This document shows, in pieces, positions 339 through 35,060 of a DNA stretch of 35,092 nucleotides (its first letter is position 1; each line of letters opens with the position of its first letter). The stretch is from Phycisphaerales bacterium (GTDB lineage Bacteria > Planctomycetota > Phycisphaerae > SM23-33). The stretch covers positions 1 through 35,092 of the forward strand of contig JABGPF010000019.1 of NCBI GenBank assembly GCA_018645065.1. Direction: 5' to 3'. The translations under genes and the position numbers were made by a program. The notes under the pieces were generated by a model. It saw only the letters and a program-made list of their open reading frames with translations. It did not search any database and was not told the DNA's origin.

Positions 339-367
339 TTGACAGAAAATCCCATGGCTCGTACTAT
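339..367 (+). promoter_or_regulatory. sigma70-type promoter, TTGACA-N17-TACTAT
   Basis: A perfect -35 hexamer TTGACA (339-344) is separated by exactly 17 bases from TACTAT (362-367), which matches the -10 consensus at four of six positions. The predicted transcript starts near 374, about 20-25 bases before the ATG at 397. Confidence 0.65.
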
Positions 368-396
368 CAATCTATCGTGCCGTGGGGTCGGGGCGT

Positions 397-699
397 ATGA
401 AAAAGCGGGTGGCTGGTGAGTGTCAACCGGAAGATTGCAGGTGGATTATGCGTAGAAATGTGGTAGCACTTCCAGACGAAGAATATGATGCAATGGCCGC
501 ACCGCTGGTGGACGAGGCCTGTAGGCTCATAGAAGAAATCGGAGGTTCCAGAGCTTATTTGCTCCCAGTGATCATAGCATCGTTGCGGCCATACGCTCGC
601 GATTATGAAGTATCGCAAGGGGACGGGGGGGCGGTTCAAAGCAAAGCGCCGAAGATGCACCGCCCGCATTTGCGCATTCACAAGCCCGACGTTTTGTAG
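397..699 (+). CDS. small hypothetical protein of the phage-like module
   Basis: This gene encodes about 100 residues of unknown function. It lies directly behind a near-consensus promoter (339-367), which is the main reason to believe in it. The start chosen is ATG 397 behind a G-rich stretch. A GTG at 382 and an ATG at 448 (preceded by AGG six bases upstream) are alternatives; the latter gives a protein beginning MRRNVVALPDEEYDAMA. The middle is acidic and probably helical (VDEACRLIEEIGG), and the C-terminus is basic and rich in His and Pro. I see no membrane segment or recognised motif. It points toward the convergent repressor gene at 824-1258 and may belong to the same element. Confidence 0.5.
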   Translation: MKKRVAGECQPEDCRWIMRRNVVALPDEEYDAMAAPLVDEACRLIEEIGGSRAYLLPVIIASLRPYARDYEVSQGDGGAVQSKAPKMHRPHLRIHKPDVL

Positions 700-823
700 G
701 CTTAATGTCTGCGCCGGTTGTGCATTTTAGATGTGATCAGTTGCCCCAGGATTAACCGGAGCAATACCGGGAGTTCCCTGCGCGCATGCGAACGAAAGAG
801 TCGGCCCGGGCGATACCGCGATA

Positions 824-1258
824 TCACGCCGACGTATCGCCAGTCTGCTGGCGACGCTTGTTCTTTACGCTGTGATGATGCGCCTCTGCCGCTGCGAGAT
901 TGCTGCTCAGATCGGCGCCGAGTATCCCGCCTTCTTCGGTCCCACCACCGGAGGCAAGACCGAAAACAAAACCCGCCGCGCGAGCCTGCAAAACCGGATC
1001 AAGCTTCCGGAAGGCTGCAAGCAATTCTCGCTCCTGACCGGTGACAGGCATTGGCGCAGAATCACCAGATATCTGCATCAGAGTCTTGGGCGGCACACCG
1101 GTGGCTTGGGCTATCTTGTGCAGAATACCAGTACCACCAAGATTGTGCTCGGCGCGACTTATCGTTATACGCGAACAACCTATCTCCGCCGCCAAGTCGG
1201 ACTGAGTCCGGAACCCGCTGGCGATTCGTGCGTCTCGTACTGCTTTACCATTGATCAT
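824..1258 (-). CDS. Cro/C1-type (XRE family) HTH repressor
   Basis: This 144-residue protein has an N-terminal helix-turn-helix of the XRE/C1 type (about residues 5-60: VRDARIASGFRTQSDLAAEI, then SRITISRAEHN), in which the QSDLAAEIGCSRITISRAE part is the typical HTH core. The C-terminal half has a hydrophobic helix (about residues 85-100) and a low-complexity basic tail. In the family, such proteins repress a divergent lytic or transfer operon and often their own gene. Here the gene is divergent from the 1464-4070 operon, with candidate operators between them, so it is probably the regulator of that operon. No ribosome binding site is visible. Instead the -10 hexamer ends only six bases before ATG, suggesting a leaderless mRNA. 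Confidence 0.8.
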   Translation of the reverse strand: MINGKAVRDARIASGFRTQSDLAAEIGCSRITISRAEHNLGGTGILHKIAQATGVPPKTLMQISGDSAPMPVTGQERELLAAFRKLDPVLQARAAGFVFGLASGGGTEEGGILGADLSSNLAAAEAHHHSVKNKRRQQTGDTSA

Positions 1259-1264
1259 GTATGT

Positions 1265-1294
1265 ATTCTACGCGCCGAACAAGGGACCATGCAA
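1265..1294 (-). promoter_or_regulatory. promoter of the repressor gene, probably leaderless
   Basis: On the minus strand TTGCAT (1294-1289) and TAGAAT (1270-1265) are separated by 18 bases. The start codon at 1258 begins six bases after the -10 hexamer, so transcription would begin at or next to the ATG, as known for lambda cI transcribed from PRM. This explains the absence of a ribosome binding site. Confidence 0.55.
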
Positions 1295-1400
1295 CTTTCT
1301 TGAACATTTTTTTTGGTGATGCAACTCACGCTGTACACGGAGATAACGATACCCAAAAACACGATTTGACCAAAAAGCGTTACAAATGAAACATTTATGC

Positions 1401-1428
1401 TTGCACAATGATGCATCACTGTTACAAT
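1401..1428 (+). promoter_or_regulatory. promoter of the divergent operon, TTGCAC-N16-TACAAT
   Basis: TTGCAC (1401-1406) and TACAAT (1423-1428) are spaced by 16 bases. The predicted start of transcription is near 1435, about 30 bases before the GTG at 1464. The spacer contains the palindrome described separately, so repressor binding there would block RNA polymerase. Confidence 0.55.
1409..1418. promoter_or_regulatory. candidate operator, palindrome TGATGCATCA
   Basis: TGATGCATCA is a perfect 10-base palindrome inside the spacer of the 1401-1428 promoter, and its flanks extend the symmetry to 14 of 16 positions. The half-site TGATGCA recurs at 1317-1323 and ATGCAAC at 1289-1295, overlapping the -35 region of the repressor promoter. 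A second inverted repeat, GTTACA (1421-1426) with TGTAAC (1440-1445), overlaps the -10. Binding by the 824-1258 repressor is inferred. Confidence 0.45.
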
Positions 1429-1463
1429 AATAGCTGTAATGTAACCAAATGAGGTCAGATGTA

Positions 1464-1793
1464 GTGGAAAAGGGAAGTAAAAACATAACAGCGGGGCAGC
1501 AGTTGGGTCAGTTGGTTAACGGACGAATAATTCCCGCGATTGCGGAATTACGTGCTCGTTGGGACCGATTATACCCGGCTGTTCGCGACTCAAAACGTCC
1601 GGATGTTTTTGTGTGTCGCGGTTGCGGGCATCGGGTCGAGTCGAGTTTGATCGATGGCGGAGCCTATCAGATCAGGACGGTGGCAGGGCGTCATTTCGGG
1701 CATCCTGACCTGGACTCGCCCGACGAGTTTGTAACATTATGCCCCGATTGCGGAGCAACTGAGAGTTTCGGGGAGGTCGCCCATGCGGAGTAA
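1464..1793 (+). CDS. zinc-ribbon-like small protein, first gene of the module operon
   Basis: This is a protein of about 109 residues with two Cys pairs: CRGC followed by GHR in the middle, and CPDC near the end. Together these could bind one zinc as a ribbon. The N-terminal half is probably helical (GRIIPAIAELRARWDRLYPA). I chose GTG 1464 because GAGG at 1451-1454 sits nine bases before it. The upstream in-frame ATG at 1449 has no ribosome binding site and lies only about 14 bases after the predicted transcript start, but remains possible. The gene overlaps the next by 11 bases, so the two are probably translated together. The function is unknown; a nucleic-acid-binding role is a guess from the zinc ribbon and context. 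Confidence 0.65.
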   Translation: MEKGSKNITAGQQLGQLVNGRIIPAIAELRARWDRLYPAVRDSKRPDVFVCRGCGHRVESSLIDGGAYQIRTVAGRHFGHPDLDSPDEFVTLCPDCGATESFGEVAHAE

Positions 1794-2163
1794 GAAGCAA
1801 CTTCCTGACAACGCGATCGGGTTTCGCTGCACCGGTCCGGAGTGCGGGCAGTGGGTTGGCGATGTTCGATATGTCGGCCCGATGGGCCACGCGCCCCGAA
1901 ACCTCTGTTTCGAATGCTGGGTCGAACATTGGGAGCGTGTGGAGGCGATCGCCATGAACGGTGGACGCTGGACTGATATCGACGAAGCGCTCTGGTTGGT
2001 CTGTCATGGTCTGACGTTCAGCCAGGCCGCCGACATCATCACCATAAATCGCAAAACGCTGCATCGCTGGATTACGAAAATGCGCCGCCAGCCCGATCTC
2101 ATACCCGGTTGGTTGATTCACAAAAACGAAGTTCTGCGTCAAACAATCTCGCAGGCAATCTGA
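1783..2163 (+). CDS. small protein with Cys-rich N-terminus and HTH-like C-terminus
   Basis: This 126-residue protein has two parts. The N-terminal part carries CTGPEC and, about 28 residues later, CFEC, a spacing that could form a zinc-binding site. The C-terminal part (about residues 80-105, LTFSQAADIITINRKTLHRW) reads as a helix-turn-helix, similar in style to the DNA-binding part of small transposase or terminase-like phage proteins. It overlaps the preceding gene by 11 bases and is followed 13 bases later by the next gene, so it sits in one operon. It may bind DNA. Family membership could not be recognised. Confidence 0.65.
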   Translation: MRSKKQLPDNAIGFRCTGPECGQWVGDVRYVGPMGHAPRNLCFECWVEHWERVEAIAMNGGRWTDIDEALWLVCHGLTFSQAADIITINRKTLHRWITKMRRQPDLIPGWLIHKNEVLRQTISQAI

Positions 2164-2176
2164 CAGGAGAAATCAA

Positions 2177-2635
2177 ATGAGCAAATTAACGAACAAACCG
2201 CACCCCCAATTCACAAGACGCAAAAAGCTTTTGTGGCGGATGGCGATGGCTATTTGCGGGGCACATGGCCTGCACGCATCGATCCGCAAAGAGGCGGCTG
2301 CTGAGATCACTGCAAACGCCTACAGAATCCCTCCGGAAAAACTGCAGGCCTACGCCCATCAGGTGGCCAGTAGAGCCCTAGCCGCCGATTTGCATATCCC
2401 GCGACGAGATATACCACTATCCCGCATAGCCTCAAAAGCAATCGCCGAATACGAATACGAACGCAGGAGGCGAGATGTGAGGCGAATGATTACCGACGGG
2501 GTCGACAACTGGGTGTCCGGGTTCGACTACCAAAGCCGACGCTTTGCCATCGAAAACGGCGTCTGCCCAAGATGCGGAGAACTCGGCGCTTTTACAGAAG
2601 ACGGTGGGGCCTGCCAGTGCGGATTCAAGTTCTAA
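2177..2635 (+). CDS. hypothetical protein with C-terminal zinc ribbon
   Basis: This 152-residue protein is preceded by a clear ribosome binding site (CAGGAG seven bases before ATG). It is rich in Lys and Arg at the N-terminus and along the predicted helices. It ends in a compact zinc-ribbon pattern, CPRCGE then CQCGF, about 17 residues apart. The N-terminal region (RRKKLLWRMAMAICGAHGL and following) appears helical and basic, compatible with nucleic-acid binding. The short spacing to both neighbours and the ATG overlapping the TAA stop (base 2635) place it in the module operon. No specific function can be assigned. Confidence 0.65.
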   Translation: MSKLTNKPHPQFTRRKKLLWRMAMAICGAHGLHASIRKEAAAEITANAYRIPPEKLQAYAHQVASRALAADLHIPRRDIPLSRIASKAIAEYEYERRRRDVRRMITDGVDNWVSGFDYQSRRFAIENGVCPRCGELGAFTEDGGACQCGFKF

Positions 2636-2658
2636 TGAGAAAACGAAAGGACGAAAAA

Positions 2659-2868
2659 ATGGGATCAGGAAACGAACATGCGGTCTTGGAACCGATATGC
2701 GAATTGACGGAGATGAAGCCCGAACGCTCGCCAGGGCTCGACGTCCCGGACGTCGTGATAGTTTTCGAACTGGATCAGGGCCAATACGCCTCAGCCAGAG
2801 AGCATCTGGATCATTTGATCGACGTTCACAACCTTTCAGCACACGTACATTTTGAGGACCAACAATGA
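2659..2868 (+). CDS. small acidic hypothetical protein
   Basis: This is a 69-residue acidic protein beginning MGSGNEHAVLEPICELTEMK. The start at 2659 is chosen because AAAGGA sits seven bases before it. An in-frame ATG at 2635, overlapping the previous stop, would add eight residues but has no ribosome binding site. The C-terminal half contains a strand-like VVIVFEL and a helix with several His residues (SAREHLDHLIDVH). Its TGA overlaps the next ATG (ATGA, 2865-2868), so it is translationally coupled to the ABC-GNAT gene, which suggests the two products act together. No known family was recognised. Confidence 0.6.
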   Translation: MGSGNEHAVLEPICELTEMKPERSPGLDVPDVVIVFELDQGQYASAREHLDHLIDVHNLSAHVHFEDQQ

Positions 2869-4070
2869 AACTTTCATGCAGTTACGCCTCGGCGCCAAAG
2901 CGCCCTACGTGCAATACGTCGTACATTCGCGACATGTTCGGGATCGACTTCGAGACCGCCCGAACTGTCATCGCACGCGATGTCGAGATCGATTATCGCC
3001 CAGGCCGTATCGTGTTGTTTGTAGGCCCGAGCGGTAGCGGTAAGTCGAGTTTACTTCGCGCAGCGGCGGGGCGGTTGGCCGGGGGCGTGAGTTTGGATGA
3101 TTCGTTCGACGATTCGCGAGCGATTATCGACACGCTCGGTCCAGACGCACGCCGGGCGGTTCATTATCTGGGCGTCTGCGGATTGTCCGAAGCGATGGTC
3201 CTGCTACGAACGCCCGGTGAACTGAGCGACGGGCAACGCTACCGATACGCATTGGCCAGATGCCTTGCCAGCGAGTCGAAGACCATCGTAGCCGACGAAT
3301 GGTGCGCCTCGCTCGACCAGGTGGCTGCACGAGTGATAAACTATAATGTTCGTCGTCTTGCCGACACGCGAGGGGTGGGGTTTTTGCTGGCGGGCACTCG
3401 TGAAGATATTATTGACGACCTCCGTCCCGACGTGATTGTTTATTGTCGCGGCGGCGGGGTGGTCGATGTGCAGAACATGTCCCAACCGCAGCCTCGCGGG
3501 CCGATCAGCTTCAGTCACGAATTGGAGATATGCGAGGGGAAACTGTCGGATTGGCCATATTTCGCCAAGTGGCACTATAGGGGCCATGGGATCGGACCGA
3601 TCCGACGGGTGAATCTGCTGATGCACCATGGGCGGAAGGTCGGGATATGCATATTCGGATTCGGACCGCTGGCAAGTGCTCAGCGTAATCGGTTGTTTGG
3701 TCTCAAGGGGAAAATAACTTCCGCTCGGGCCAGATTGATCAACGAAAACTTCGCATGCGTGTCGCGTATCGTTTTGGAGCCTACTTATCGGGGCGCGGGT
3801 ATTGGCGGGCTCTTTCTTCGCAGGGCGTGTGAGGCGGCGCCGTGGCCTTGGATTGAACTTATAAGCGAGATGGCCAATCTCGTACCGTTCTATAGGTCGG
3901 CGGGGTTTGTACTCACCGGTCGCTCGACATGCGCGTCTGTCAAAAAACCGGACACAAGCGCCGGTCGCGCGTTCTGGGGCAAGTCAAACTGGACCGACGC
4001 CACATACGCTAAATACAAAAAACGCACCCGTCACAGCCGCCCAGCCTACTGCATCCGAGACAACCGATAA
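2865..4070 (+). CDS. ABC-type ATPase fused to GNAT (Mom-like) acyltransferase, COG2401 type
   Basis: This 401-residue protein has an ABC ATPase half and an acyltransferase half. In the first, Walker A is GPSGSGKS (about 54-61), the signature is LSDGQ (120-124, a variant of LSGGQ) and Walker B is TIVADEW (about 140-146, with D144 and E145). The usual switch His appears to be missing (LLAGTRE). No membrane segments are present, so it is not a transporter. Residues about 215-350 are a GNAT domain with the acyl-CoA loop RGAGIG (309-314) and a FYRSAGF ending. The architecture matches COG2401, an ABC-type ATPase fused to a predicted acetyltransferase. The WHY near the start of the GNAT half, followed by a GICIFG strand, recalls Mom-family enzymes that modify adenine in phage DNA. 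That link is an inference from pattern memory. It is the last gene of the coupled operon. Confidence 0.85.
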   Translation: MKLSCSYASAPKRPTCNTSYIRDMFGIDFETARTVIARDVEIDYRPGRIVLFVGPSGSGKSSLLRAAAGRLAGGVSLDDSFDDSRAIIDTLGPDARRAVHYLGVCGLSEAMVLLRTPGELSDGQRYRYALARCLASESKTIVADEWCASLDQVAARVINYNVRRLADTRGVGFLLAGTREDIIDDLRPDVIVYCRGGGVVDVQNMSQPQPRGPISFSHELEICEGKLSDWPYFAKWHYRGHGIGPIRRVNLLMHHGRKVGICIFGFGPLASAQRNRLFGLKGKITSARARLINENFACVSRIVLEPTYRGAGIGGLFLRRACEAAPWPWIELISEMANLVPFYRSAGFVLTGRSTCASVKKPDTSAGRAFWGKSNWTDATYAKYKKRTRHSRPAYCIRDNR

Positions 4071-4154
4071 CGATCAATGGTTGCCCGAGGCGCCGGGGGA
4101 TATATAATTGCTGTCGGTGATGTTGCGAAATACGCGATTGTGGGAGTTGCCATT

Positions 4155-4628
4155 GTGAAATATATGAAATATACTCAAAAATTGTGCCTGATGCTTCTGG
4201 GGCTTTTTGTTGCCTGTCAGGTGTCTTGCACTTCGGCGGGACCCGGTAAGTTGGTCGAACTGGCTCGGCCTGCGCCGGAATCGACAAAACCGGTGATCCG
4301 GACTGGCGCTACGATCAAGGAGGCGATGTCGATCGCGAGGGCAAAAGCCAAATCCGGTGAATATGACTTCATTATCGATAATATGCTCTCCGAGGAGTGC
4401 ATAAATGATGTGATCCGCAAGTTCGGTAAAGACAAATGGCGTGAGAAGATAAAGCAAGAAGGCCTCAAACGCCTCCCGTACTACTACGGATGGATGAAGA
4501 ATCCCTCCGCCCGCACATTCGGTGATAAGACGATCCTGACCGGTCAGCATGGTTGTTACGCCGAGTACGTCAAAGTCGGTGACGCGTATCTGATAGTGGA
4601 TTTCGGTCAGCGTCTTACGTCGATGTAG
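4155..4628 (+). CDS. putative lipoprotein, function unknown
   Basis: This protein of about 157 residues begins, after a GTG start, with a basic and hydrophobic signal (KYTQKLCLMLLGLFVACQVSC) that ends in one of two Cys residues and could be lipid-modified. GTG 4155 is chosen because GGGAG lies eight bases upstream; the ATG at 4164 is too far from it. The mature part has a Pro-rich linker and then a mostly helical domain (SGEYDFIIDNMLSEECINDV), ending in beta-like segments (CYAEYVKVGDAYLIVDFG). I do not recognise the family. The gene lies between the phage-like module and the sulfatase and may belong to either side. Confidence 0.65.
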   Translation: MKYMKYTQKLCLMLLGLFVACQVSCTSAGPGKLVELARPAPESTKPVIRTGATIKEAMSIARAKAKSGEYDFIIDNMLSEECINDVIRKFGKDKWREKIKQEGLKRLPYYYGWMKNPSARTFGDKTILTGQHGCYAEYVKVGDAYLIVDFGQRLTSM

Positions 4629-23606: not shown

Positions 23607-25223
23607 TTAATTATCTGACGGCTTGGTCTCGGCCTGGACGGCGTAGAGATATCGCCCTGTGTTCACGTACAATACTCCGCCAGCGGTTACCGGCGTGCTG
23701 GACATATTATCCAACAACTTGATCTTGTTGAATATCTTTTTCTTTTTTGACGCTTTAAATATCCACATCTCTTTCCGCTGTGTGCCGAGGTATACTTTCC
23801 CGTCGACGGCGAACGTTGAGCTCCACAGCGGTGAGGTGGGTCTGTACGGATGCTTTTCGAATTGCGGGTCGGTGTGATGGATCCAGTATCGCTTACCGGT
23901 ATCGGCGTCGAAGCAGTGGACGCTGCCGGAATAGTCGGCGATATAGAGCAGCCCGTTGTAGATCGAACAGGTTGACAGCGAGCGTTCGATTTTTCGCGAG
24001 TCCCACACCTTCTTACCGGTGGCGGCGTCTACGCACGAGAGCATACCGTCGCCGGTTCCATGGTTCGGGTCGTGTCCGGTGGCTACGTAAACGCGGTTGT
24101 TATGGAATACCGGCGTGGCGATGATTTCACTTGGCCCGTTGCGACGAACTTTGTTCCTCGCCGGTCCGGTAAGCCTTTGGTACAGGCGTTTTTTGCCCTG
24201 GGCGTCGAAGCGATAGTCATGCGGATTGCAGTCGTATGACCAGACTTTTTTCAGTGTCGCCGGTTTGTCGCCTTCGGGTGATTTGGACAGTGGCTCGAAC
24301 GCGTAGAGCAGTCCGTCGCCGGCTCCGTAGAATATCAGCGTTTTGTCGCCAACTTTCCCCATCGCCGGTGACGACCATTGGCCGTGCAGCATCCGACGCC
24401 CGATTTTCTCGTCGTCAACCGCCGCCAACTTACCGGTTTTCTTGTTCAACGCGATAAAGCTCGGCGCGTCGGGGTAGGGCAGATTGATATGCGAAAGGTC
24501 AGGCCCGTTTGACGTGCCGACGTAAATAAAATCACCGCAAATCAGGGCGGCGCAGCTTACCGCGTCGTGCGGGCGCACGGGCAGTTGTGTGACCATATCG
24601 TATCGCCAGATGATGTCGGCGTCGGACTTGTTCAGCTTCGCGGCGGGTCGTCCAGAGGCGACGATGAACTTCCCTTCATCCTGGAAAGGCCCGTCGTTGC
24701 CGTCAGACTGCCCGTTCATGTCGAGGCATAGAATCTCGCCTCGACCGGTCACCAGATACGCCCGATCGCCTTCGATAGTCGCCGAATTGCATATGCCCAG
24801 ATTCATCTGGTCCATATAGAACCCGCGTTCCTTGATCACATATCGCGGGACGGCGAGCTGCCAGAGCGTTTTGCCCGTTTTGGCGTCGCAGCAGATCACC
24901 AATCCGCCTCGGGTGCGGGTCAGCCGCTTGTCCGACAATATCGCATCGTTCGTGCCTACGATGATCTTACCGTCTGAAACCACCGGGTTGCCGTAAGTTT
25001 GGCTGCCCAGAGTAATCGCCCATTTAACGTTGCGGGTCGTGGACATGTCGATCTGGCGGCGCCCGTCTTTAGTTTTGCCCATCCCGAACGATAGCGGGAT
25101 ATTCTTAGCGTCTGAGGCCATGTTGCGCCCCGGGCCTCCGCCCCATTCGGGCCAATCTTCAGCCCAGACGGCGCCGCTCGACATCGCCAGGGTCAGCGTT
25201 ATGATGATACGGATCAGTTTCAT
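23607..25223 (-). CDS. secreted PQQ-like beta-propeller protein (third tandem copy)
   Basis: This 538-residue protein has a Sec signal (about 1-21, ending VWA) followed by DWPEWGGGPGRNMAS. Eight-bladed propeller motifs of the PQQ/quinoprotein type follow, for example CCDAKTGKTLWQL and CVDAATGKKVWD. A vicinal Cys pair, C111-C112, lies in a blade motif and is shared by all three copies. The cofactor-binding residues of true quinoprotein dehydrogenases cannot be confirmed here, and no haem motif is present, so enzymatic activity is uncertain; a binding or scaffold role is possible. The junction with the previous copy is 8 bases with TAAGAGGCC before the ATG, nearly the same as at the other junction. 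Confidence 0.85.
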   Translation of the reverse strand: MKLIRIIITLTLAMSSGAVWAEDWPEWGGGPGRNMASDAKNIPLSFGMGKTKDGRRQIDMSTTRNVKWAITLGSQTYGNPVVSDGKIIVGTNDAILSDKRLTRTRGGLVICCDAKTGKTLWQLAVPRYVIKERGFYMDQMNLGICNSATIEGDRAYLVTGRGEILCLDMNGQSDGNDGPFQDEGKFIVASGRPAAKLNKSDADIIWRYDMVTQLPVRPHDAVSCAALICGDFIYVGTSNGPDLSHINLPYPDAPSFIALNKKTGKLAAVDDEKIGRRMLHGQWSSPAMGKVGDKTLIFYGAGDGLLYAFEPLSKSPEGDKPATLKKVWSYDCNPHDYRFDAQGKKRLYQRLTGPARNKVRRNGPSEIIATPVFHNNRVYVATGHDPNHGTGDGMLSCVDAATGKKVWDSRKIERSLSTCSIYNGLLYIADYSGSVHCFDADTGKRYWIHHTDPQFEKHPYRPTSPLWSSTFAVDGKVYLGTQRKEMWIFKASKKKKIFNKIKLLDNMSSTPVTAGGVLYVNTGRYLYAVQAETKPSDN

Positions 25224-25231
25224 GCGGCCTC

Positions 25232-26833
25232 TTATTTTTTCGCGGATATCGCGTAAAGGTATCGTCCGGTGGCGAGGTACAGTATACCGTTTGCGGTTAT
25301 CGGGGTATTGGACATCTTCTCCAGGAGGCGAATTCGATTCAGTATTTTCTTTTTCTTACCGGTGCGGAATATCCAGAGTTCTTTCTTTTCGGTGCCGAGG
25401 TATACCTTTCCGTCGGCGGCGAATGTGGAGCTCCAAAGCGGTGAGTTGGTTTTCAGTATCCACTTACCGTACTCCGGATCGGTGTGGTGCACCCAATGTC
25501 GCTTACCCGTATCCGGGTCGAAGCAGTGCAGGTTGCCTGTATAGTCGGCGATGTAGAGCAAACCGTCGTAAATTGAACAGGTCGACAGGGAGCGTTCGAC
25601 CAGTTGCGACTCCCAGACTTTCTTACCGGTGGCGGCGTCCACGCATGAGAGGCATCCCTTGCCCGTTCCGTGGAGCGGATCTTGCCCAATTGTCACATAT
25701 ACTCGCCCTTTATAGAGCACAGGCGTGGCGATGATCTCGCAGGGACCCTCGCCGCGCGTGGTGTTGCGAGCGGTTCCGTGTATACGCTGATAAACGATCT
25801 TCTCACCGTTGGGTCGGAAGCGATACTCGCGAGGATTGCAGTCGTATCGCCATGCTTTTCTGAGCGTTGCGACCTTGCCTGCCCCGGGCGCCTGGGACAA
25901 CGCCTCGAACGCGTAAAGCATTCCATCTCCGCCACCGTAAAAAATGAGCGTTTTGTTTCCGATTTTCCCCATCGCAGGTGAGGACCACTGCCCGTGGAGC
26001 ATGCGGCGTCCGATTTTCTCGTCATCTTTGGCAAGAAGCTTACCGGTCTTCTTGTTCAGCACGATCAGGCTCGGAGCGTCGGGATATTTAACGTTGATGT
26101 GGGACAGGTCCACGCCGTTGCCAGTGCCTACATATATGAAATCTCCGTGAATCAGCGGGCTGCAGCTCATTGCGTCGTGAGGCCGGACGGGCAGGCTGGT
26201 GATTATGTCGTATCGCCAGATGATGTCGGCGTCTGACTTATTGAGCTTGGCTGCGGGGCGGTTTTTGGCGACCATGTACTTGCCCTCGTCCTGGAACGGT
26301 CCGTCATTTCCATCGGCCTGTCCGTTCATGTCGAGACAGAGCACATCACCGCGATTTGAGACGATGTATGCCCGATCGCCTTGGATAACCGCCGAGTTGC
26401 AAATGCCCAGATTCAGTTGGTCAATGGAGAACCACTTCTCACTTAACATCTGACGCGGGACAACGAGTTGCCAGAGCCTTTTGCCCGTTTCGGCGTCGCA
26501 GCAGATAACCAATCCGCCGCGAGTGCGCTTGAAGCGATCATCGGACAGAACAGAATCGTTCGTGCCGACGATGATTTTACCGCCTGATATTACGGGGTTA
26601 CCGTAAGTTTGGCTGCCCAGAGTAATTGCCCACTTCACGTAGCGGGTTGTGGACATATTGATCTGTCGGAGCCCGTGTTTTTGCTCACCAGGGGCGAACG
26701 ATACGGGCAGGTTCTTCGCATTCGAGGCCATGTTGCGACCCGGACCGTAACCCCACTCGGGCCAATCTTCAGCCCAGACCGCGCCGCTCGATATCGTCAG
26801 GGTCAGCGTAATGATAATGCCGGTCAGTCTCAT
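25232..26833 (-). CDS. secreted PQQ-like beta-propeller protein (second tandem copy)
   Basis: This 533-residue paralogue is closest to the third copy (23607-25223). The signal peptides and the region after them share long runs, such as SSGAVWAEDWPEWG. Blade motifs include CCDAETGKRLWQL and CVDAATGKKVWE. The vicinal Cys pair C111-C112 is at the same place. The start is ATG 26833, eight bases after the previous stop, with AAGAGGCC as the ribosome binding site. The near-identity at the N-terminus, compared with greater divergence of the first copy there, suggests that copies two and three arose from the later duplication or exchanged sequence. The role is unknown; surface location is likely. Confidence 0.85.
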   Translation of the reverse strand: MRLTGIIITLTLTISSGAVWAEDWPEWGYGPGRNMASNAKNLPVSFAPGEQKHGLRQINMSTTRYVKWAITLGSQTYGNPVISGGKIIVGTNDSVLSDDRFKRTRGGLVICCDAETGKRLWQLVVPRQMLSEKWFSIDQLNLGICNSAVIQGDRAYIVSNRGDVLCLDMNGQADGNDGPFQDEGKYMVAKNRPAAKLNKSDADIIWRYDIITSLPVRPHDAMSCSPLIHGDFIYVGTGNGVDLSHINVKYPDAPSLIVLNKKTGKLLAKDDEKIGRRMLHGQWSSPAMGKIGNKTLIFYGGGDGMLYAFEALSQAPGAGKVATLRKAWRYDCNPREYRFRPNGEKIVYQRIHGTARNTTRGEGPCEIIATPVLYKGRVYVTIGQDPLHGTGKGCLSCVDAATGKKVWESQLVERSLSTCSIYDGLLYIADYTGNLHCFDPDTGKRHWVHHTDPEYGKWILKTNSPLWSSTFAADGKVYLGTEKKELWIFRTGKKKKILNRIRLLEKMSNTPITANGILYLATGRYLYAISAKK

Positions 26834-26841
26834 GGGGCCTC

Positions 26842-28413
26842 TTACTTTTCAGCGGATATTGCGTAAAGGTATCGTCCGGTGGCGATGTAGAGTACGCCGT
26901 TTGCGACGGTGGGGGTGTTGGCCATTTTTTCCAGCAGCTTAATCTTGTTGAGGACCTTCTTTTTCTTACCGGTTTGCAGCACCCACAGCTCGCTGTTCTC
27001 GGTGCCCAGGAATACTTTCCCATCCACCGCGAATGTTGAACTCCACAGCGGTGATTTGGTTTCGTGCACCCAGTATCGCTGCCCCGTTTCGGCGTCGAAG
27101 CAGTGCAGGTTGCCCGTATAGTCCGAGACGTAAACCAGATCGTCGAGGATTGAACAGGTCGACATTGTCCGGTCAACCTGCTTCGAGATCCAGACCCTTT
27201 TGCCCGTGGCTGCATCGATGCATGAAAGGGCTCCGTCGCCTATACCGTGACGCGAGTCCTGCCCGATCGCCACGTAGATTTTTCCTTTGTAAAACACGGG
27301 CGTTGCGATGATCTCCGAAGGCCCTCCGCCGCGCTTACCGCTCTTGTAACTGGCGTGACGCTTCTCGTACGGGCGTTTCTTTCCGTTCTTGTCGAACCGG
27401 TATTCCTTGGGGCTGCAGTCGTATTTCCACGCTACTTTGAGTATTTCAGGCTTGTCGCCGTCGGGCATTTTTGTCAGGGCTTCGAAGGCGTAGAGAACTC
27501 CGTCACCGCATCCGTAGACCAGCAGCTTCTTACCGCCTGCGGTAATTAACGCTGGTGACGACCACTGGCCGTGCAGTATGTTCCGGCTGGTTTTCTCGTT
27601 GTCCTGCGCCAGGAGTTTGCCCGTCTTTCGGTTCAACACGATAATGCTCGGCGCGTCGGGGTATTTGCACTTGTTGTGCCCGCGATCAACACCGTTTGAC
27701 GTGCCTGCGTAGACAAAATCACCGTCTACTATAACCGCGCAGCTAGATGCGTCCTGCGGATTCATGGGCAGTTCGGCGATCATGTCGTATCGCCAGATTA
27801 TGTCGGCGTCAGTCTTGTTGAGTTTGGCGGGGGGCTTTCCAGCTTCGACCATGTACTTGCCCTCGTCCTGGAACTCGCCGTCGTTCCCGTCGGCCTGGCC
27901 GTTCATGTCGAGGCAGAGCACTTCACCGCGACTCGAAACGATATAGGCTCTGTCGCCCTGGATCGCCGCTGAGTTGCAGATGCCCAGGTTAAGATTATCG
28001 TAGTTGAACTTTCGGTCTTTGGTGCGGAATCGCGGGACGACAAGGCGCCAGAGCGTTTTACCCGTTTCGGCGTCGCAGCATATCACCAGCCCGCCGCGAG
28101 TGCGTTTGAACCGCTTGTCCCTGAGCATTCCGTCGTTTGTGCCGACGATGATTTTTCCGCCGGCGATAACGGGATTGCCGTAGGTCTGGCTGCCGAGTAC
28201 GAGTGACCATTTAACGTTTCGCGTGGTTGAAGGGTCGATCTGTCGCGAGTCGTCTTTGGACTTTCCAGGCCCGAACGACGTGGGGATGTTCTTTTCGACC
28301 GACGCCATGTTGCGAGTTGGCCCACCGCCCCAGTCGCCCCAGTCGCCCGCCTGGGCAGCCGTCGACATAAACGCGGTGATTAAGGCGACGATACCGATGT
28401 TCGAAAGTTTCAT
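26842..28413 (-). CDS. secreted PQQ-like beta-propeller protein (first tandem copy)
   Basis: This 523-residue protein is the first gene of the operon that runs leftwards to 21072. It has its own signal peptide (MKLSNIGIVALITAFMSTAA, ending QAG), different from the other two copies. The mature part then aligns from DWGDWGGGPTRNMAS onward. Blade motifs include CCDAETGKTLWRL and CFDAETGQRYWV. The vicinal Cys pair is C112-C113. A GGAGACACC site precedes ATG 28413, and the AACGTTATA element lies about 30-45 bases upstream. It lacks the short insertion before SPLWSSTF seen in the other copies. The exact function is unknown. Confidence 0.85.
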   Translation of the reverse strand: MKLSNIGIVALITAFMSTAAQAGDWGDWGGGPTRNMASVEKNIPTSFGPGKSKDDSRQIDPSTTRNVKWSLVLGSQTYGNPVIAGGKIIVGTNDGMLRDKRFKRTRGGLVICCDAETGKTLWRLVVPRFRTKDRKFNYDNLNLGICNSAAIQGDRAYIVSSRGEVLCLDMNGQADGNDGEFQDEGKYMVEAGKPPAKLNKTDADIIWRYDMIAELPMNPQDASSCAVIVDGDFVYAGTSNGVDRGHNKCKYPDAPSIIVLNRKTGKLLAQDNEKTSRNILHGQWSSPALITAGGKKLLVYGCGDGVLYAFEALTKMPDGDKPEILKVAWKYDCSPKEYRFDKNGKKRPYEKRHASYKSGKRGGGPSEIIATPVFYKGKIYVAIGQDSRHGIGDGALSCIDAATGKRVWISKQVDRTMSTCSILDDLVYVSDYTGNLHCFDAETGQRYWVHETKSPLWSSTFAVDGKVFLGTENSELWVLQTGKKKKVLNKIKLLEKMANTPTVANGVLYIATGRYLYAISAEK

Positions 28414-31139: not shown

Positions 31140-31178
31140 ACACCCGGAATTATTATACCAATATCTCGCCGCGGGTGT
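31140..31178 (-). promoter_or_regulatory. extended -10 promoter inside an inverted repeat, upstream of the PilZ gene
   Basis: On the minus strand TGGTATAAT (31160-31152) is an extended -10 box with a perfect TATAAT, lying 32 bases before the PilZ ATG. Seven-base arms ACACCCG and CGGGTGT (31178-31172 and 31146-31140) flank it, so the same sequence can form a hairpin or serve as an operator. One arm overlaps the stop codon of pyrC. Confidence 0.4.
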
Positions 31179-32449
31179 TAGAGTTGAAATTTCACTTCGC
31201 CGCCAACGATTGTTGTGACGGCTTTGCTCTTCAATTTCCATCCGTGGTAGGGGCAGTTCCTGCCTTTGGAGGCGAATTTGTTCACGTTTACTGTCCACCG
31301 CTTTTTGGGATCGATTATCGTTATGTCGGCCGGGGCGTCTTTTTGCAGGAGTCCCAGCGTTGGCGCGATAATTTTCGCGGGGTTTACCGTTAGTCTGGCC
31401 AGCATTTCGGGCCAGTCCATCAGTCCGCTGTGGATAAGCGCCTTTGTGTACAGGCCCAACGCGCAATCCAGCGAAACGATTCCGAACGGAGCCAGCGCGA
31501 ACTCCATTTCTTTTTCTTCTTGTGCGTGCGGTGCGTGGTCAGTGGCCAGGCAGTCTATTGTCCCGTCGGCAACGCCCAGACGAAGCGCCTCCACGTCGCT
31601 TGCAGACCTCAGCGGTGGGTTCATTTTGTAGTTCGGGTCGTATCCCATGCATGCTGCGTCGGTTAGCAGGAGATGGTGGGGGGCGGCTTCTGCGGTTACG
31701 GGAAGGCCTTCGGCTTTGGCTTGTCGGATGATTTCGACCGAGCCAGCCGACGAAAGGTGCATCGCGTGATACCTTGCTCCGGTCCGTTTGACCAGCTCCA
31801 GATCGCGTCGGAGCATTATTTCTTCACCGGAAGCGGCGATACCCGGAAGCCCAAGTCGCACTGCTACGGCGCCTGAGTTCATCACTCCGCCGAACAGATC
31901 GGGGTCCTGGCAGTGCTGCATTAGCACCACGCCGATCATCTTGGCGTATTGCAGTGCTCGTTGCATTACGATGGTGCTGGCTACTCCGGTCCCGTCGTCA
32001 GTGAACGCTACGGCTCCGGCTTCGAGCATCATGCCCATTTCGGCGAGTTCTTTTCCCTCGCGCTGTTTGGTGATGCAGCCGGCAGGCAGGACTCGTGCCT
32101 TGCCCGCACGCGCCATTCGCTGGAGAACGTACAGGATTGACGTTTCATCGTCCTGGGGCGGATGAGTGTTGGGCATCGCGCAGATAGTGCTGAACCCGCC
32201 TGCGACTGCGGATGCGGCGGCAGTTGCGATGGTCTCTTCTTCTTCGTGGCCCGGTTCGCGACAATGTGCGTGCAGATCGATCAGGCCGGGCGATACGATC
32301 ATTTCCGAAGCGTCAATCGTCTGATGGGCCTTTGGCGCCGCTCGTCCGATTTTGGTGACGAATCCGTTTGAGATCGCGACGTTTGCGATTTCGTCTCGCC
32401 CAGAGGCCGGGTCGATCACGCGTCCGTTTGTTATGAGGATATCGATCAT
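31178..32449 (-). CDS. pyrC: dihydroorotase
   Basis: This 423-residue amidohydrolase converts carbamoyl-aspartate to dihydroorotate in pyrimidine synthesis. Near the N-terminus it has the metal-binding DLHAHCREPGHEEEETI (H60, H62). CAMPNTHP follows, then the class I dihydroorotase helices, a TAEAAPHHL segment and the late DCLATDHAPHAQEEK. This sequence pattern is typical of dihydroorotases that work with an aspartate carbamoyltransferase. It lies 24 bases downstream of pyrB, in an operon with pyrR. The length fits the family. Confidence 0.95.
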   Translation of the reverse strand: MIDILITNGRVIDPASGRDEIANVAISNGFVTKIGRAAPKAHQTIDASEMIVSPGLIDLHAHCREPGHEEEETIATAAASAVAGGFSTICAMPNTHPPQDDETSILYVLQRMARAGKARVLPAGCITKQREGKELAEMGMMLEAGAVAFTDDGTGVASTIVMQRALQYAKMIGVVLMQHCQDPDLFGGVMNSGAVAVRLGLPGIAASGEEIMLRRDLELVKRTGARYHAMHLSSAGSVEIIRQAKAEGLPVTAEAAPHHLLLTDAACMGYDPNYKMNPPLRSASDVEALRLGVADGTIDCLATDHAPHAQEEKEMEFALAPFGIVSLDCALGLYTKALIHSGLMDWPEMLARLTVNPAKIIAPTLGLLQKDAPADITIIDPKKRWTVNVNKFASKGRNCPYHGWKLKSKAVTTIVGGEVKFQL

Positions 32450-32473
32450 GTGTAAATCCGTTTGCGTTTGCGA

Positions 32474-33460
32474 TTATTCCCGACCGCGGCTTACCAGGTA
32501 CAGGACGGCCATTCGCACCGCCAGCCCGTTGGTAACCTGCTGGAGGATGCAACTGTTTGGTCCGTCTGCTACATCGCTGGTAAGCTCCACACCGCGATTA
32601 ATCGGGCCGGGGTGCATTATCAGGACGTTTTTGCGGCATTTCGCCAGGCGTTTTGAGTTCATTCCGAACAGGCTGCTGTATTCTCGCACCGAGGGGAACA
32701 GGTTGCTGGCGAACCGTTCGAACTGGATTCGAAGCATGTTTATCACGTCGACCTGGTCGAGTATGTCGTCAAGGCTGTTGGATACTTCACAGCCCATCGC
32801 GGTGATCGTGCTTGGTACGAGCGTTGGCGGTCCGACAACAACGACCTCGGCGCCAAGTTTTTTCAGGCCCAGGATATTACTGCGCGCCACCCGCGAATGT
32901 GCGATATCGCCCACGATTGCAACTCTCACGCCTTCGAGGGTTCCGAGTTTCTGGCGGATGGTGAAGATATCGAGCAACGCCTGGGTGGGGTGCTCGTGTT
33001 GCCCGTCGCCTGCGTTTATGATCGGTACGTTGACCTTGTCCTGCAGCAGATGCGGGGCTCCGCTCTGTGAGTGACGTATCACAAAGGCGTCTACGCCCAT
33101 CGCCTCGACGTTCCTGACCGTATCGAGCGTGGTTTCGCCTTTTGACGTGGACGACCCCTTGCCCGACAGGAACACCGTATCGGCGCTGAGCCTGCTGGCA
33201 GCGAGTTCGAAGCTCATCCGCGTGCGGGTTGAATCCTCGAAGAACAGCAGCGCCACGACCTTGCCGCGCAGAGCGGGCACTTTCTTGATCGAACGCGTGG
33301 AGACTTCCTGGAAGCTCTGTGCGGTGTCGAGAATGTGAACAATCTCCTCGGCCGACAGTTCGTCCAGGCCGACGAGATCTTTCCGAGTCCAGACAAACTT
33401 GTCGTTGTCCGGTTTGCTGTCAGTCTCTTTTGACGAGGAAGACGCCTTCTTTGTCATCAT
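32474..33460 (-). CDS. pyrB: aspartate carbamoyltransferase, catalytic chain
   Basis: This 328-residue enzyme joins carbamoyl phosphate and aspartate, the first committed step of pyrimidine synthesis. The carbamoyl-phosphate motif FFEDSTRTRMSFE contains S77-T-R-T-R81. HPTQALLD (157-164) and HPGPINRG near the C-terminus are all present. The N-terminal 20 residues are a Ser/Lys-rich extension not normally present. GAGGGAAC precedes two ATG codons at 33460 and 33457. The gene overlaps the end of pyrR by 41 bases, so the two are translationally coupled. No pyrI regulatory chain gene is seen. Confidence 0.96.
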   Translation of the reverse strand: MMTKKASSSSKETDSKPDNDKFVWTRKDLVGLDELSAEEIVHILDTAQSFQEVSTRSIKKVPALRGKVVALLFFEDSTRTRMSFELAASRLSADTVFLSGKGSSTSKGETTLDTVRNVEAMGVDAFVIRHSQSGAPHLLQDKVNVPIINAGDGQHEHPTQALLDIFTIRQKLGTLEGVRVAIVGDIAHSRVARSNILGLKKLGAEVVVVGPPTLVPSTITAMGCEVSNSLDDILDQVDVINMLRIQFERFASNLFPSVREYSSLFGMNSKRLAKCRKNVLIMHPGPINRGVELTSDVADGPNSCILQQVTNGLAVRMAVLYLVSRGRE

Positions 33461-33983
33461 GTTCCCTCAGCCTGACCTGGATTCTTGTATCCGGTTTGGC
33501 GGTGAGTTTCTTTCCGATGAAATCCGCGCTGATGGGCAGTTCTCTGCCCCCGCGGTCTATAAGTACGCCCAGGCGAACCACCTGAGGGCGTCCGAAATCG
33601 TGTATGGCGCCAAGTGCGGCGCGGATCGACCGCCCGGTGGCCAGCACGTCGTCGACCAGCAGCATCCAGGTGTCGTCGATATCAAAGTCAATCTCGGTGG
33701 CCCGCACCATCGGGGCTCCGCGCTGACGAGACAGATCGTCGCGATAGAACGTTATGTCCAGAACTCCGTGGTTAATGCTCAATTCGGGATGATCGCTGGT
33801 CATACGTTCGACGAGTCTGGTCGCGAGGATCTCACCGCGAGTGCGTATCCCGATTATTGCAATGGGGCGATCGGAGGGTAATTGCTTTTCAATCGCTTTA
33901 TAGAGCGTGTCGATAGCGACTTGGACTTGTTCTGCTGAGAGTTTCTTTTTCATCTGCTCGGAATCCATTCGTGTTGGCCGCAT
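33420..33983 (-). CDS. pyrR: PyrR bifunctional regulator / uracil phosphoribosyltransferase
   Basis: This protein of about 187 residues has the PRPP-binding motif LLVDDVLATGRSIRAAL in its second half and IAIIGIRTRGEILATRL in the first, as in PyrR. PyrR binds pyrimidine mRNA leaders and represses the operon by attenuation; it also makes UMP from uracil. The start is uncertain: ATG 33983 has a G-rich stretch eight bases upstream, while ATGs at 33968 and 33953 would give lengths of about 182 and 177, closer to the family norm. It is the first gene of pyrR-pyrB-pyrC and directly follows a strong promoter. The leader is short, so classic attenuation upstream of pyrR is not evident. Confidence 0.88.
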   Translation of the reverse strand: MRPTRMDSEQMKKKLSAEQVQVAIDTLYKAIEKQLPSDRPIAIIGIRTRGEILATRLVERMTSDHPELSINHGVLDITFYRDDLSRQRGAPMVRATEIDFDIDDTWMLLVDDVLATGRSIRAALGAIHDFGRPQVVRLGVLIDRGGRELPISADFIGKKLTAKPDTRIQVRLREHDDKEGVFLVKRD

Positions 33984-34019
33984 AATAAAGCCCCATAGGT
34001 CAAAGGGCAAGCGCAATTC

Positions 34020-34053: not shown

Positions 34054-34599
34054 TCAGATCAGTTCGAACAGTGATTGGGTTTTCACTATTGTCAGGTCGT
34101 CAGGAAATGCGTGGAATGCGAATACGTGCAGGCCGGAGGGCTTGGCTTCGTAGTCTATGAAGGTGAACGGAGTTAGCGGAGGGTTCGTCATCCAGGTTGG
34201 GAACGGGACGAACATTCCGCGAGCGGCGCCGATTTTGGCAAGGTCGTGATGAGTTTTGTGATAGACCATCGGGCTCATCTGCTCGACCTGGAAGTTCATC
34301 ATGTAATTGATGCCTCCGCTACGCTTATGCTGAAGGACCTTCTCACCGCGAAAGGCGACATGCTTGATCATCCCGCGCTGGGGCAGGTCGGCGCGATCGT
34401 CGGCTGTAAGCTCCACCAGGGAGCGTCCGTCACGGAAGAAACCGATAACGTGCGTGCAGCCGGTGACCCATATCTGGGCCTCGTAGCCACTGGTTATCAG
34501 GTGACGATCATTGTATATCTCGAACAGCTCCGGATGGATAGGGCGGTCGTACAGATAATACTTGAGCGACGAAATACTTTGTTGTTGACGCGCAGTCAT
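34054..34599 (-). CDS. conserved hypothetical protein (possibly DUF2617-like)
   Basis: This 181-residue soluble protein has no signal peptide. It begins with polar residues and then YYLYDRPIHPELFEIYNDRH. This is followed by a beta-rich region (YEAQIWVTGCTHVIGFF, SLVELTADDRADLP) and a His-containing middle (MVYHKTHHDLAKIGA). The pattern around HPELF and a beta-sandwich-like continuation reminded me of DUF2617, but I could not confirm it. It is upstream of the pyr operon on the same strand but separated from it by that operon's own promoter. The function is unknown. Confidence 0.65.
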   Translation of the reverse strand: MTARQQQSISSLKYYLYDRPIHPELFEIYNDRHLITSGYEAQIWVTGCTHVIGFFRDGRSLVELTADDRADLPQRGMIKHVAFRGEKVLQHKRSGGINYMMNFQVEQMSPMVYHKTHHDLAKIGAARGMFVPFPTWMTNPPLTPFTFIDYEAKPSGLHVFAFHAFPDDLTIVKTQSLFELI

Positions 34600-34742
34600 A
34601 ATGCTCGAACTTCTCTCTCGGATTACCGGACGGCCCGTGCCTTCCGGGGGGCCATTGTGTCATGCCCGCATTATAACATTTTGGGCGGCGCATTCAAAGC
34701 GACCCAGCCGATTGAGCAGGGCAAACGCATTCTCACCATTAT

Positions 34743-35060
34743 TAACGGCAAACGGCCTTGCCACAGAGAGCACAGAGAACGGCAACGGCAACGACAAACG
34801 GCCTTGCCACAGAGATCACAGAGAACGGCAACGGCGGAAAAGATGTTAACGGCAACGGCTTACGGCGAGAACACAGAGGACGGCAACGGCAACGACAAAC
34901 GGCCTGGCCACAGAGATCACAGAGAACGGCAACGGCGGAAAAGATGTTAACGGCAACGGCAACGGCTTACGGCGAGAACACAGAGGACGGCAACGGCAAC
35001 GGCAAACGGCCTTGCCACAGAGAGCACAGAGGACGGTAACGGCAACGGCCTTGCTACAGA
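34743..35060. repeat. imperfect tandem repeat of AACGGC and CACAGAG blocks
   Basis: No gene is seen from 34600 to the window end. From 34743 the sequence is built of AACGGC hexamers, GCCACAGAG(A/G)(T/G)CACAGAG blocks and two copies of GGAAAAGATGTTAACGGC. The larger unit repeats with spacing of 101 (34791 to 34892) and then 107 bases (to 34999), the difference being one extra hexamer. Predicted short peptides from this stretch are artefacts of the repeats. Confidence 0.8.

What the first reader, a model, noticed from the sequence alone, without database searches (positions are those of the whole stretch)
1464..4070. Coupled operon ending in an ABC ATPase-GNAT (Mom-like) fusion: possible DNA-modification or defence module
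Five overlapping or closely spaced genes, three of them with zinc-ribbon or HTH signs, end in a COG2401-type ABC ATPase joined to a GNAT domain whose WHY, GICIFG and RGAGIG pattern recalls the Mu Mom DNA-modification family. A phage-type repressor gene is divergent. I know of no characterised system with this exact set.
Basis: partly seen in the sequence, partly recalled or inferred. Interest (0 to 1): 0.75.

Follow-up and report, generated by a model that had tools for sequence, protein, structure and literature searches.

The report
Domesticated phage DNA-marking gene cassette
A small set of genes in a marine planctomycete ends in an enzyme that viruses of bacteria keep beside their DNA-packing motor and that probably tags DNA bases; planctomycetes seem to have kept it as their own, which makes its unknown purpose testable.

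Summary
The operon is real and under purifying selection: all seven cassette genes recur in order in two sibling genomes. The last gene (2865-4070) is an ABC ATPase-GNAT fusion. Its GNAT half shares an invariant His-Tyr with phage Mu Mom, and Mom is its best VIA-align match, though tied with ordinary GNATs; unlike Mom it keeps a standard CoA loop. Relatives sit in a phage module, ParB - ABC-GNAT - TerS - TerL. The window's fourth gene is a ParB gene without its core. In Planctomycetota the module is often chromosomal, with fixed host flanks, co-inheritance with a host gene and, in Planctomycetaceae, one matching portal gene in 18 of 18 genomes: like a gene transfer agent or a domesticated prophage. 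The window's version lost ParB core and terminase but kept regulators and enzyme. Most likely it acylates DNA bases; the substrate is untested. Defence has no positive evidence. DNA modification by ABC-GNAT was already predicted in print; the packaging link and chromosomal fixation were not found in the papers searched.

The parts
382..699 (+). orf105, conserved small protein upstream of the cassette, no family
   Evidence: 60-68% identical in G001 (two copies) and 64% in G002 at the same place; pN/pS 0.28-0.42; no Pfam/PHROG/NCBIfam hit
824..1258 (-). divergent XRE/Cro-type regulator, 144 aa
   Evidence: HTH_3 3.7e-4, PHROG 8 6.8e-6; 71-83% identical in siblings
1449..1793 (+). Zn1, small protein with two CxxC pairs (zinc-ribbon-like)
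   Evidence: sub-threshold Zn ribbon hits; siblings 64%
1783..2163 (+). Zn2-HTH, CxxC protein with C-terminal helix-turn-helix
   Evidence: HTH_23 2.3e-4; found in 6 of 60 genomes, own included; in G017 upstream of Zn3, ParB and a phage-type fusion
2177..2635 (+). Zn3, 152 aa with C-terminal CxxC zinc-ribbon-like tail
   Evidence: homologues in G001, G002, G015
2635..2868 (+). C-terminal remnant (77 aa) of a ParB-like protein; ParB core missing
   Evidence: aligns to the last ~60 aa of the 203-aa ParB protein of G002; G002 protein hits PF02195 3.1e-5 and ParB PHROGs; same loss in G001
2865..4070 (+). ABC ATPase-GNAT fusion, 401 aa
   Evidence: AlphaFold model pLDDT 91.3, pTM 0.86
3024..3050 (+). 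Walker A region (GPSGSGKSS, residues 54-62) of the ATPase half
   Evidence: invariant G54 S56 G57 G59 K60
3570..3578 (+). WHY motif (residues 236-238), shares His-Tyr with Mom
   Evidence: H and Y invariant over 21 GNAT halves and over 8 Mom proteins
3789..3806 (+). RGAGIG, GNAT CoA-binding loop (residues 309-314)
   Evidence: the Mom alignment has no such loop

Best explanation
The cassette is a domesticated piece of a tailed-phage late region. In phages a ParB-like protein, an ABC ATPase and a Mom-like GNAT acyltransferase stand just before the terminase. I propose that the ParB-like protein and the dimerising ABC ATPase load on DNA, and that ATP turnover lets the GNAT half move an acyl group from a CoA thioester to an exocyclic amine of a base (adenine N6 as Mom does, or cytosine N4 as TmcA does on tRNA), marking DNA about to be packaged. 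In the window's genus the terminase neighbours are gone and, in two of three genomes, the ParB core too, but the XRE switch, three small zinc/HTH proteins, the ParB tail and the fusion enzyme are kept under purifying selection, so the host now uses the enzyme, probably to mark its own or transferred DNA when the repressor is lifted. Shown: gene content, conservation, phage packaging context, fold. Inferred: DNA as substrate, acyl-CoA as donor, base position, regulation by XRE, the purpose.
For: Packaging context: ParB directly upstream in 50 of 68 viral contigs with room (43 of 56 after removing near-copies) and 56 of 61 ParB hits in the 80 contigs are the adjacent gene; TerL within 5 kb downstream in 23 of 58 with a limited seed set, further TerL families in the rest; named phages BiggityBass, Pmp13, LE3, RHph_X66, nickie, SSU5 show ParB - ABC-GNAT - Ter. 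Relatives: 29 of 47 fusion-positive genomes have TerL on the same contig within 5 kb (my count of the rows). Domestication: no close relative in IMG/VR against 76-78% identity in siblings; fixed host flanks in relatives; co-inheritance with ThiF r 0.66-0.85; purifying selection here. Chemistry: shared His-Tyr with Mom and hhalign E 4.6e-6; Mom rank 1 by VIA-align; Foldseek rank 1 is TmcA, an ATPase-GNAT that acetylates a base; the Mu-like phage Komp_PAO1_1 carries the fusion after its tail-fibre genes, much as Mu carries mom.
Against: No test of substrate. Pfam's Mom family does not match the window protein. Foldseek ranks Mom only 23rd and VIA-align Z values are tied within 1, with a worse rmsd for Mom. 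Ordinary GNAT profiles also match. TerL and ParB are not always near in viruses (Komp_PAO1_1, pT24, VmeM-32). In the window ParB core and TerL are absent, so the phage function cannot be simply read across. The GNAT could acylate a protein (terminase, capsid, polymerase) instead.
Confidence: 0.55

Rival explanations
1. It is part of a gene transfer agent (GTA): a host-owned phage-like particle that packs chromosomal DNA. The module marks or prepares the packed DNA, and structural genes lie at other loci.
For: In Planctomycetaceae the ParB - fusion - TerL locus has a fixed host flank (ThiF) and 18 of 18 genomes hold one close portal gene, often on another contig, with head genes; trees agree. 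Thaumarchaea have GTA-like proviruses proposed in print (PMC5797428, PMC6563490, passages) and some archaeal relatives here also carry ParB and TerL.
Against: In the window's genus, siblings lack TerL and both portal types tested, so no GTA of a known type there. In Planctomycetaceae some genomes keep only a portal and one portal match is short with a stop inside: that looks like decay. Integrases and particles not tested.
Confidence: 0.25
2. The GNAT acylates a protein (terminase, portal, host polymerase) and has nothing to do with DNA modification.
For: Ordinary GNAT profiles match; phage GNAT Rac acetylates host RNA polymerase (PMC7824862, passage).
Against: Invariant His-Tyr and closeness to Mom beyond ordinary GNATs; ParB and ABC partners suit DNA loading.
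Confidence: 0.25
3. Anti-phage defence island by base modification.
For: PADLOC mad3 3e-16 and mad8 3e-8 for the ABC half, mad1 2e-4 for XRE.
Against: These fall on ATPase and HTH stretches, as for any ABC protein (NCBIfam gives transporter ATPases at 4e-17); no nuclease or methylase in the cassette; relatives are in packaging modules.
Confidence: 0.08
4. Decaying prophage remnant without function.
For: ParB core lost, TerL gone, different flanks in siblings.
Against: pN/pS 0.13-0.43 with near-saturated silent sites in all seven genes over three species, no broken frames.
Confidence: 0.07

Closest known systems
ABC ATPase-GNAT system predicted as DNA acyl modifier in phages such as Tenacibaculum pT24 (PMC7824862, citing earlier work of the same group)
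   Same: Same fusion family: pT24 is among the tblastn hits of the window protein; same predicted chemistry.
   Different: The passage read does not mention ParB, terminase or host chromosomes; the window cassette has zinc/HTH genes, a ParB remnant and no phage around it.
Phage Mu Mom (Pfam PF25680; structure 8bv8)
   Same: GNAT fold, invariant His-Tyr, invariant Arg on the next strand.
   Different: No Pfam Mom hit; keeps the standard RGxGxG CoA loop that Mom lacks; fused to an ABC ATPase.
TmcA / NAT10 RNA cytidine acetyltransferases
   Same: ATPase coupled to a GNAT that acylates a base; TmcA is Foldseek rank 1 for the GNAT half.
   Different: Helicase-type ATPase and RNA substrate (recalled); no sequence relation shown.
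Thaumarchaeal provirus-derived elements proposed as GTA-like (NCAV2-Pro1 and others)
   Same: Terminase-bearing chromosomal elements without replication genes; a Nitrosocaldus relative here carries ABC-GNAT, ParB and TerL (L221).
   Different: The passages read do not name an ABC-GNAT gene; identity of the loci was not tested.

Membership tests
ABC ATPase-GNAT fusion family of phages (PHROG 11143 / 293 / 886) | ABC ATPase and GNAT halves matched by the family profiles | tested here: met
   PHROG 11143 2e-29 over residues 17-324; 293 5.6e-25; 886 6.1e-15
ABC ATPase-GNAT fusion family of phages (PHROG 11143 / 293 / 886) | Intact Walker A, signature and Walker B | tested here: met
   GPSGSGKS, LSDGQ, DE at 144-145
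Mom DNA modification family | Match to Pfam Mom PF25680 | tested here: not met
   no hit at E 0.1 for the window GNAT half; Mu Mom 2.4e-75 as control
Mom DNA modification family | Invariant His-Tyr pair in the acceptor half | tested here: met
   aligned in register
Mom DNA modification family | Fold nearer to Mom than to other GNATs | tested here: inconclusive
   VIA-align Z 13.5 vs 12.8 next (tied); Foldseek rank 23
Mom DNA modification family | Transfers a group to a DNA base | not testable with these tools
   needs nucleoside mass spectrometry
Gene transfer agent (Planctomycetaceae relatives) | Vertical inheritance in a fixed place | tested here: met
   ThiF flank, 12 loci; Mantel p 0.001
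Gene transfer agent (Planctomycetaceae relatives) | Complete head and tail genes | tested here: inconclusive
   portal in 18 of 18; head block in most loci with room, more genes in some, portal alone in two
Gene transfer agent (window genus) | Terminase and portal present in all members | tested here: not met
   no match in G001 and G002; present in G000 on other contigs
Gene transfer agent | Particles carrying host DNA | not testable with these tools
   no wet data
Known anti-phage defence system (PADLOC) | Full set of system genes | tested here: not met
   only generic ABC and HTH matches

The most novel reading that the evidence does not exclude
Planctomycetota as a phylum own a domesticated phage DNA-packing machine, ParB - ABC-GNAT - TerS - TerL, in fixed chromosomal places, complete with separate head loci in Planctomycetaceae (a new GTA lineage) and reduced to a capsid-free motor plus base-marking enzyme in many Phycisphaerae; the window shows the most reduced state, the repressor-controlled DNA-marking enzyme alone.
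Probability: 0.3. Interest if true: 0.85.

Novelty: new variant of a known kind. Interest (0 to 1): 0.62.

Why it matters
ABC-GNAT proteins were predicted to modify DNA but I know of no shown reaction. Their usual place beside ParB and the terminase says when the marking would happen (at packaging) and gives the missing partner for an assay. Chromosomal, vertically kept copies in a whole phylum raise a direct question: do planctomycetes run gene transfer agents, and is transferred DNA chemically marked so that recipients do not destroy it?

Tried and rejected
The IMG/VR scan with the window protein alone found 5 pattern matches and no relative, which I read as absence of close viral relatives in that collection. 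Pfam, PHROG, NCBIfam gave nothing beyond weak hits for orf105, Zn3, the 77/98-aa gene and the 183-aa gene at 4077-4628. My first gene clusters joined fusion and terminase because overlapping frames were merged; replaced by direct family searches. Structure search with the whole model returned only ABC ATPases in PDB, so the GNAT half was folded alone. Portal PHROGs 145 and 21 in relatives: 9 and 24 of 60 genomes, several copies in some, so read as ordinary prophages, not as partners of the capsid-free loci. Paper searches were listings (titles, starts of abstracts, term counts); passages were read in PMC7824862, PMC5797428, PMC6563490 and PMC8072286. The statement that the packaging link or a planctomycete GTA is not in print rests on these searches of an open-licence library only. 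The 2013 prediction paper and the Mom mutagenesis paper were not held. Recalled, from no call: the reactions of Mom and TmcA, the meaning of the motifs, and the names of host genes such as ThiF, prs and ATP synthase, which I read from their sequences.

The fold alignment A11 used 65 of 82 stop-free loci plus the window; A12 used 59 of 60. In the tree test sets held 11-16 of 17 genomes; one short portal was left out. One search used 18 loci of this type (L197, L205, L208, L210 not sent). In one search groups are by record title, all others counted as Planctomycetota; L237 and L250 are titled as other phyla, but L250 is syntenic with planctomycete loci.
Full report
What is there. The window is a whole contig (C204) of a draft planctomycete genome, 5.85 Mb in 529 contigs. 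Reading right from 1449 there are five coupled genes: Zn1, Zn2-HTH, Zn3, a 77-aa gene and a 401-aa ABC ATPase-GNAT fusion, with a divergent XRE gene at 824-1258 and another small gene at 382-699. Genes overlap at 1783-1793, 2635 and 2865-2868, as in translationally coupled operons.

It is a functional unit. Two genomes of the same genus (G001, G002; GTDB titles Phycisphaerae bacterium BS750m-G57 and Arabian11_MAG_18) carry the same seven genes in the same order, with different flanks. pN/pS is 0.13-0.43 for every gene and pair and silent sites are near saturation.

The fourth gene of the operon is a worn ParB. In G002 the matching gene encodes a full ParB-like protein of 203 aa (PF02195, ParB PHROGs). 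In the window and in G001 the core is missing and only the C-terminal ~60 aa survive, still under selection. The only ParB_N hits in the own genome are on C231 and C322, not here.

Phage context. The best phage matches are only 33% identical. I read 11 of the 55 matching records. ParB stands directly or within two genes before the ABC-GNAT in 7 (SSU5, BiggityBass, Jace, Pmp13, LE3, RHph_X66, nickie); the terminase large subunit follows within 5 kb in 6 (all of these but Jace; in SSU5 across the ends of the record); ANB28 is not annotated in this respect; Komp_PAO1_1, pT24 and VmeM-32 show neither. In 80 IMG/VR contigs, ParB is directly upstream in 50 of 68 with at least 600 nt of room, 43 of 56 after collapsing at 80% identity; of 61 ParB hits in these contigs 56 are the adjacent gene. 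TerL follows within 5 kb in 23 of 58 (20 of 49 collapsed) with my seeds; among 17 further downstream proteins of the rest, terminase PHROGs 9, 15, 675, 2 and 38 are matched by 4, 3, 3, 3 and 1, overlaps not resolved.

Planctomycete chromosomes. With E up to 1e-10 the fusion query finds something in 47 of 60 relatives, 36 of 39 good ones; several matches cover only the ABC half. TerL is found in 43 of 60, and by my count of the rows 29 of the 47 have both on one contig within 5 kb. The usual order in Phycisphaerae is CI-like repressor, HTH, ABC, GNAT, ParB, TerS, TerL and then host genes. Six loci of different records share the same two membrane-protein neighbours (L236, L242, L245, L246, L250, L267), some also a ferredoxin. 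Among 80 GTDB loci close to the window type, ParB lies within 2 kb in 50, TerL within 3.5 kb in 60, either in 68, and a portal of my seed set within 9 kb in 10; many loci are cut by contig ends.

Planctomycetaceae. Here the locus is ThiF (host), HTH, ParB, fusion, TerL. ThiF was found in 12 loci. The ~497-aa protein is a terminase (PHROG 9, 7.5e-21 to 3e-29). In L207 and L216 genes that I read as ATP synthase follow. A portal query from L204 finds one close match in each of 18 genomes, 54-66% identical apart from its own, mostly on another contig. Around it are full head-tail blocks, head-only blocks with shared host flanks, or the portal alone. Distances of fusion, TerL, ParB and portal agree with each other and with ThiF (r 0.52-0.85, Mantel p 0.001). 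This is what a gene transfer agent, or an old prophage being taken over and worn down, would look like.

The window's organism. TerS-TerL-portal lie on C375 beside prs, scaffold and capsid genes on C525; the siblings have no match for TerL or these portal types at 90% and 89% completeness. So the fusion cassette is the genus-wide part and the structural genes are a separate, sporadic prophage. G017 shows the ancestry of the small genes: XRE, Zn2-HTH, Zn3, ParB and a phage-type fusion in one stretch.

Chemistry. In 21 GNAT halves His26-Tyr27, Arg90 and Gly101 are invariant; eight Mom proteins keep His58-Tyr59 and Arg111. hhalign puts His-Tyr in register: P 71%, E 3.6e-5, and P 86.5%, E 4.6e-6 with 60 sequences. 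Against Mu Mom as a single sequence the whole-fusion alignment gave nothing useful (P 0.9%). Ordinary GNATs of the own genome score P 12%, E 2.5e-3 against Mom and 63-76% against the GNAT half. The model of the GNAT half (pLDDT 85.7) has Mom as VIA-align rank 1 (Z 13.5, 5.3 A over 157) with an ordinary GNAT at 12.8 (3.1 A over 133), a tie; Foldseek puts TmcA first and Mom 23rd. The viral model library gives the Leptospira LE4 fusion first and Mom of FSL SP-031 at rank 20. The fusion keeps the standard CoA loop that Mom does not have, so an acyl-CoA donor is the simplest guess.

Verdict. A domesticated, repressor-linked, probably DNA-acylating enzyme of phage packaging origin. The family is known, its proposed chemistry is in print, and the packaging link with chromosomal fixation is the new part. 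Searches for prior mention.

Noticed in passing
G000:C375 (L040) 340-3825 and G000:C525 (L291): Sporadic prophage of the own genome: TerS, TerL, portal beside prs, and scaffold, capsid and further genes on another contig.
   Followed up: partly
G000:C322 (L058) 1265-2549: ParB-like gene followed by a possible methyltransferase fragment on a 3.3-kb contig.
   Followed up: no
L236, L242, L245, L246, L250, L267: Capsid-free CI-HTH-ABC-GNAT-ParB-TerS-TerL locus at one shared chromosomal place in Phycisphaerae.
   Followed up: partly
L221, L228, L229, L211, L215: Archaeal (Nitrososphaeria, Bathyarchaeota) ABC-GNAT genes with ParB and/or TerL beside them; L227, L230, L232 without.
   Followed up: partly
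L275, L276, L283: Head-only blocks (portal, protease, small protein, capsid-like) with the same host flanks in three Planctomycetaceae: possible capsid reuse.
   Followed up: no
window 34246-34950 and L017 3261-3340: A similar repeat-like peptide occurs in an ORF at the right end of the window and in G001 just before the ParB remnant: a dispersed repeat near the lost ParB core.
   Followed up: no
window 23607-28413: Three tandem, closely similar ~530-aa secreted beta-propeller-like proteins (read from sequence).
   Followed up: no
window 31178-34016: Dihydroorotase, aspartate carbamoyltransferase and PyrR-like genes in an overlapping run (names recalled from sequence).
   Followed up: no
L080 6944-8673 (Komp_PAO1_1): Mu-like phage with the fusion after its tail-fibre genes followed by a formyltransferase-like gene, a possible extra modification step.
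   Followed up: no
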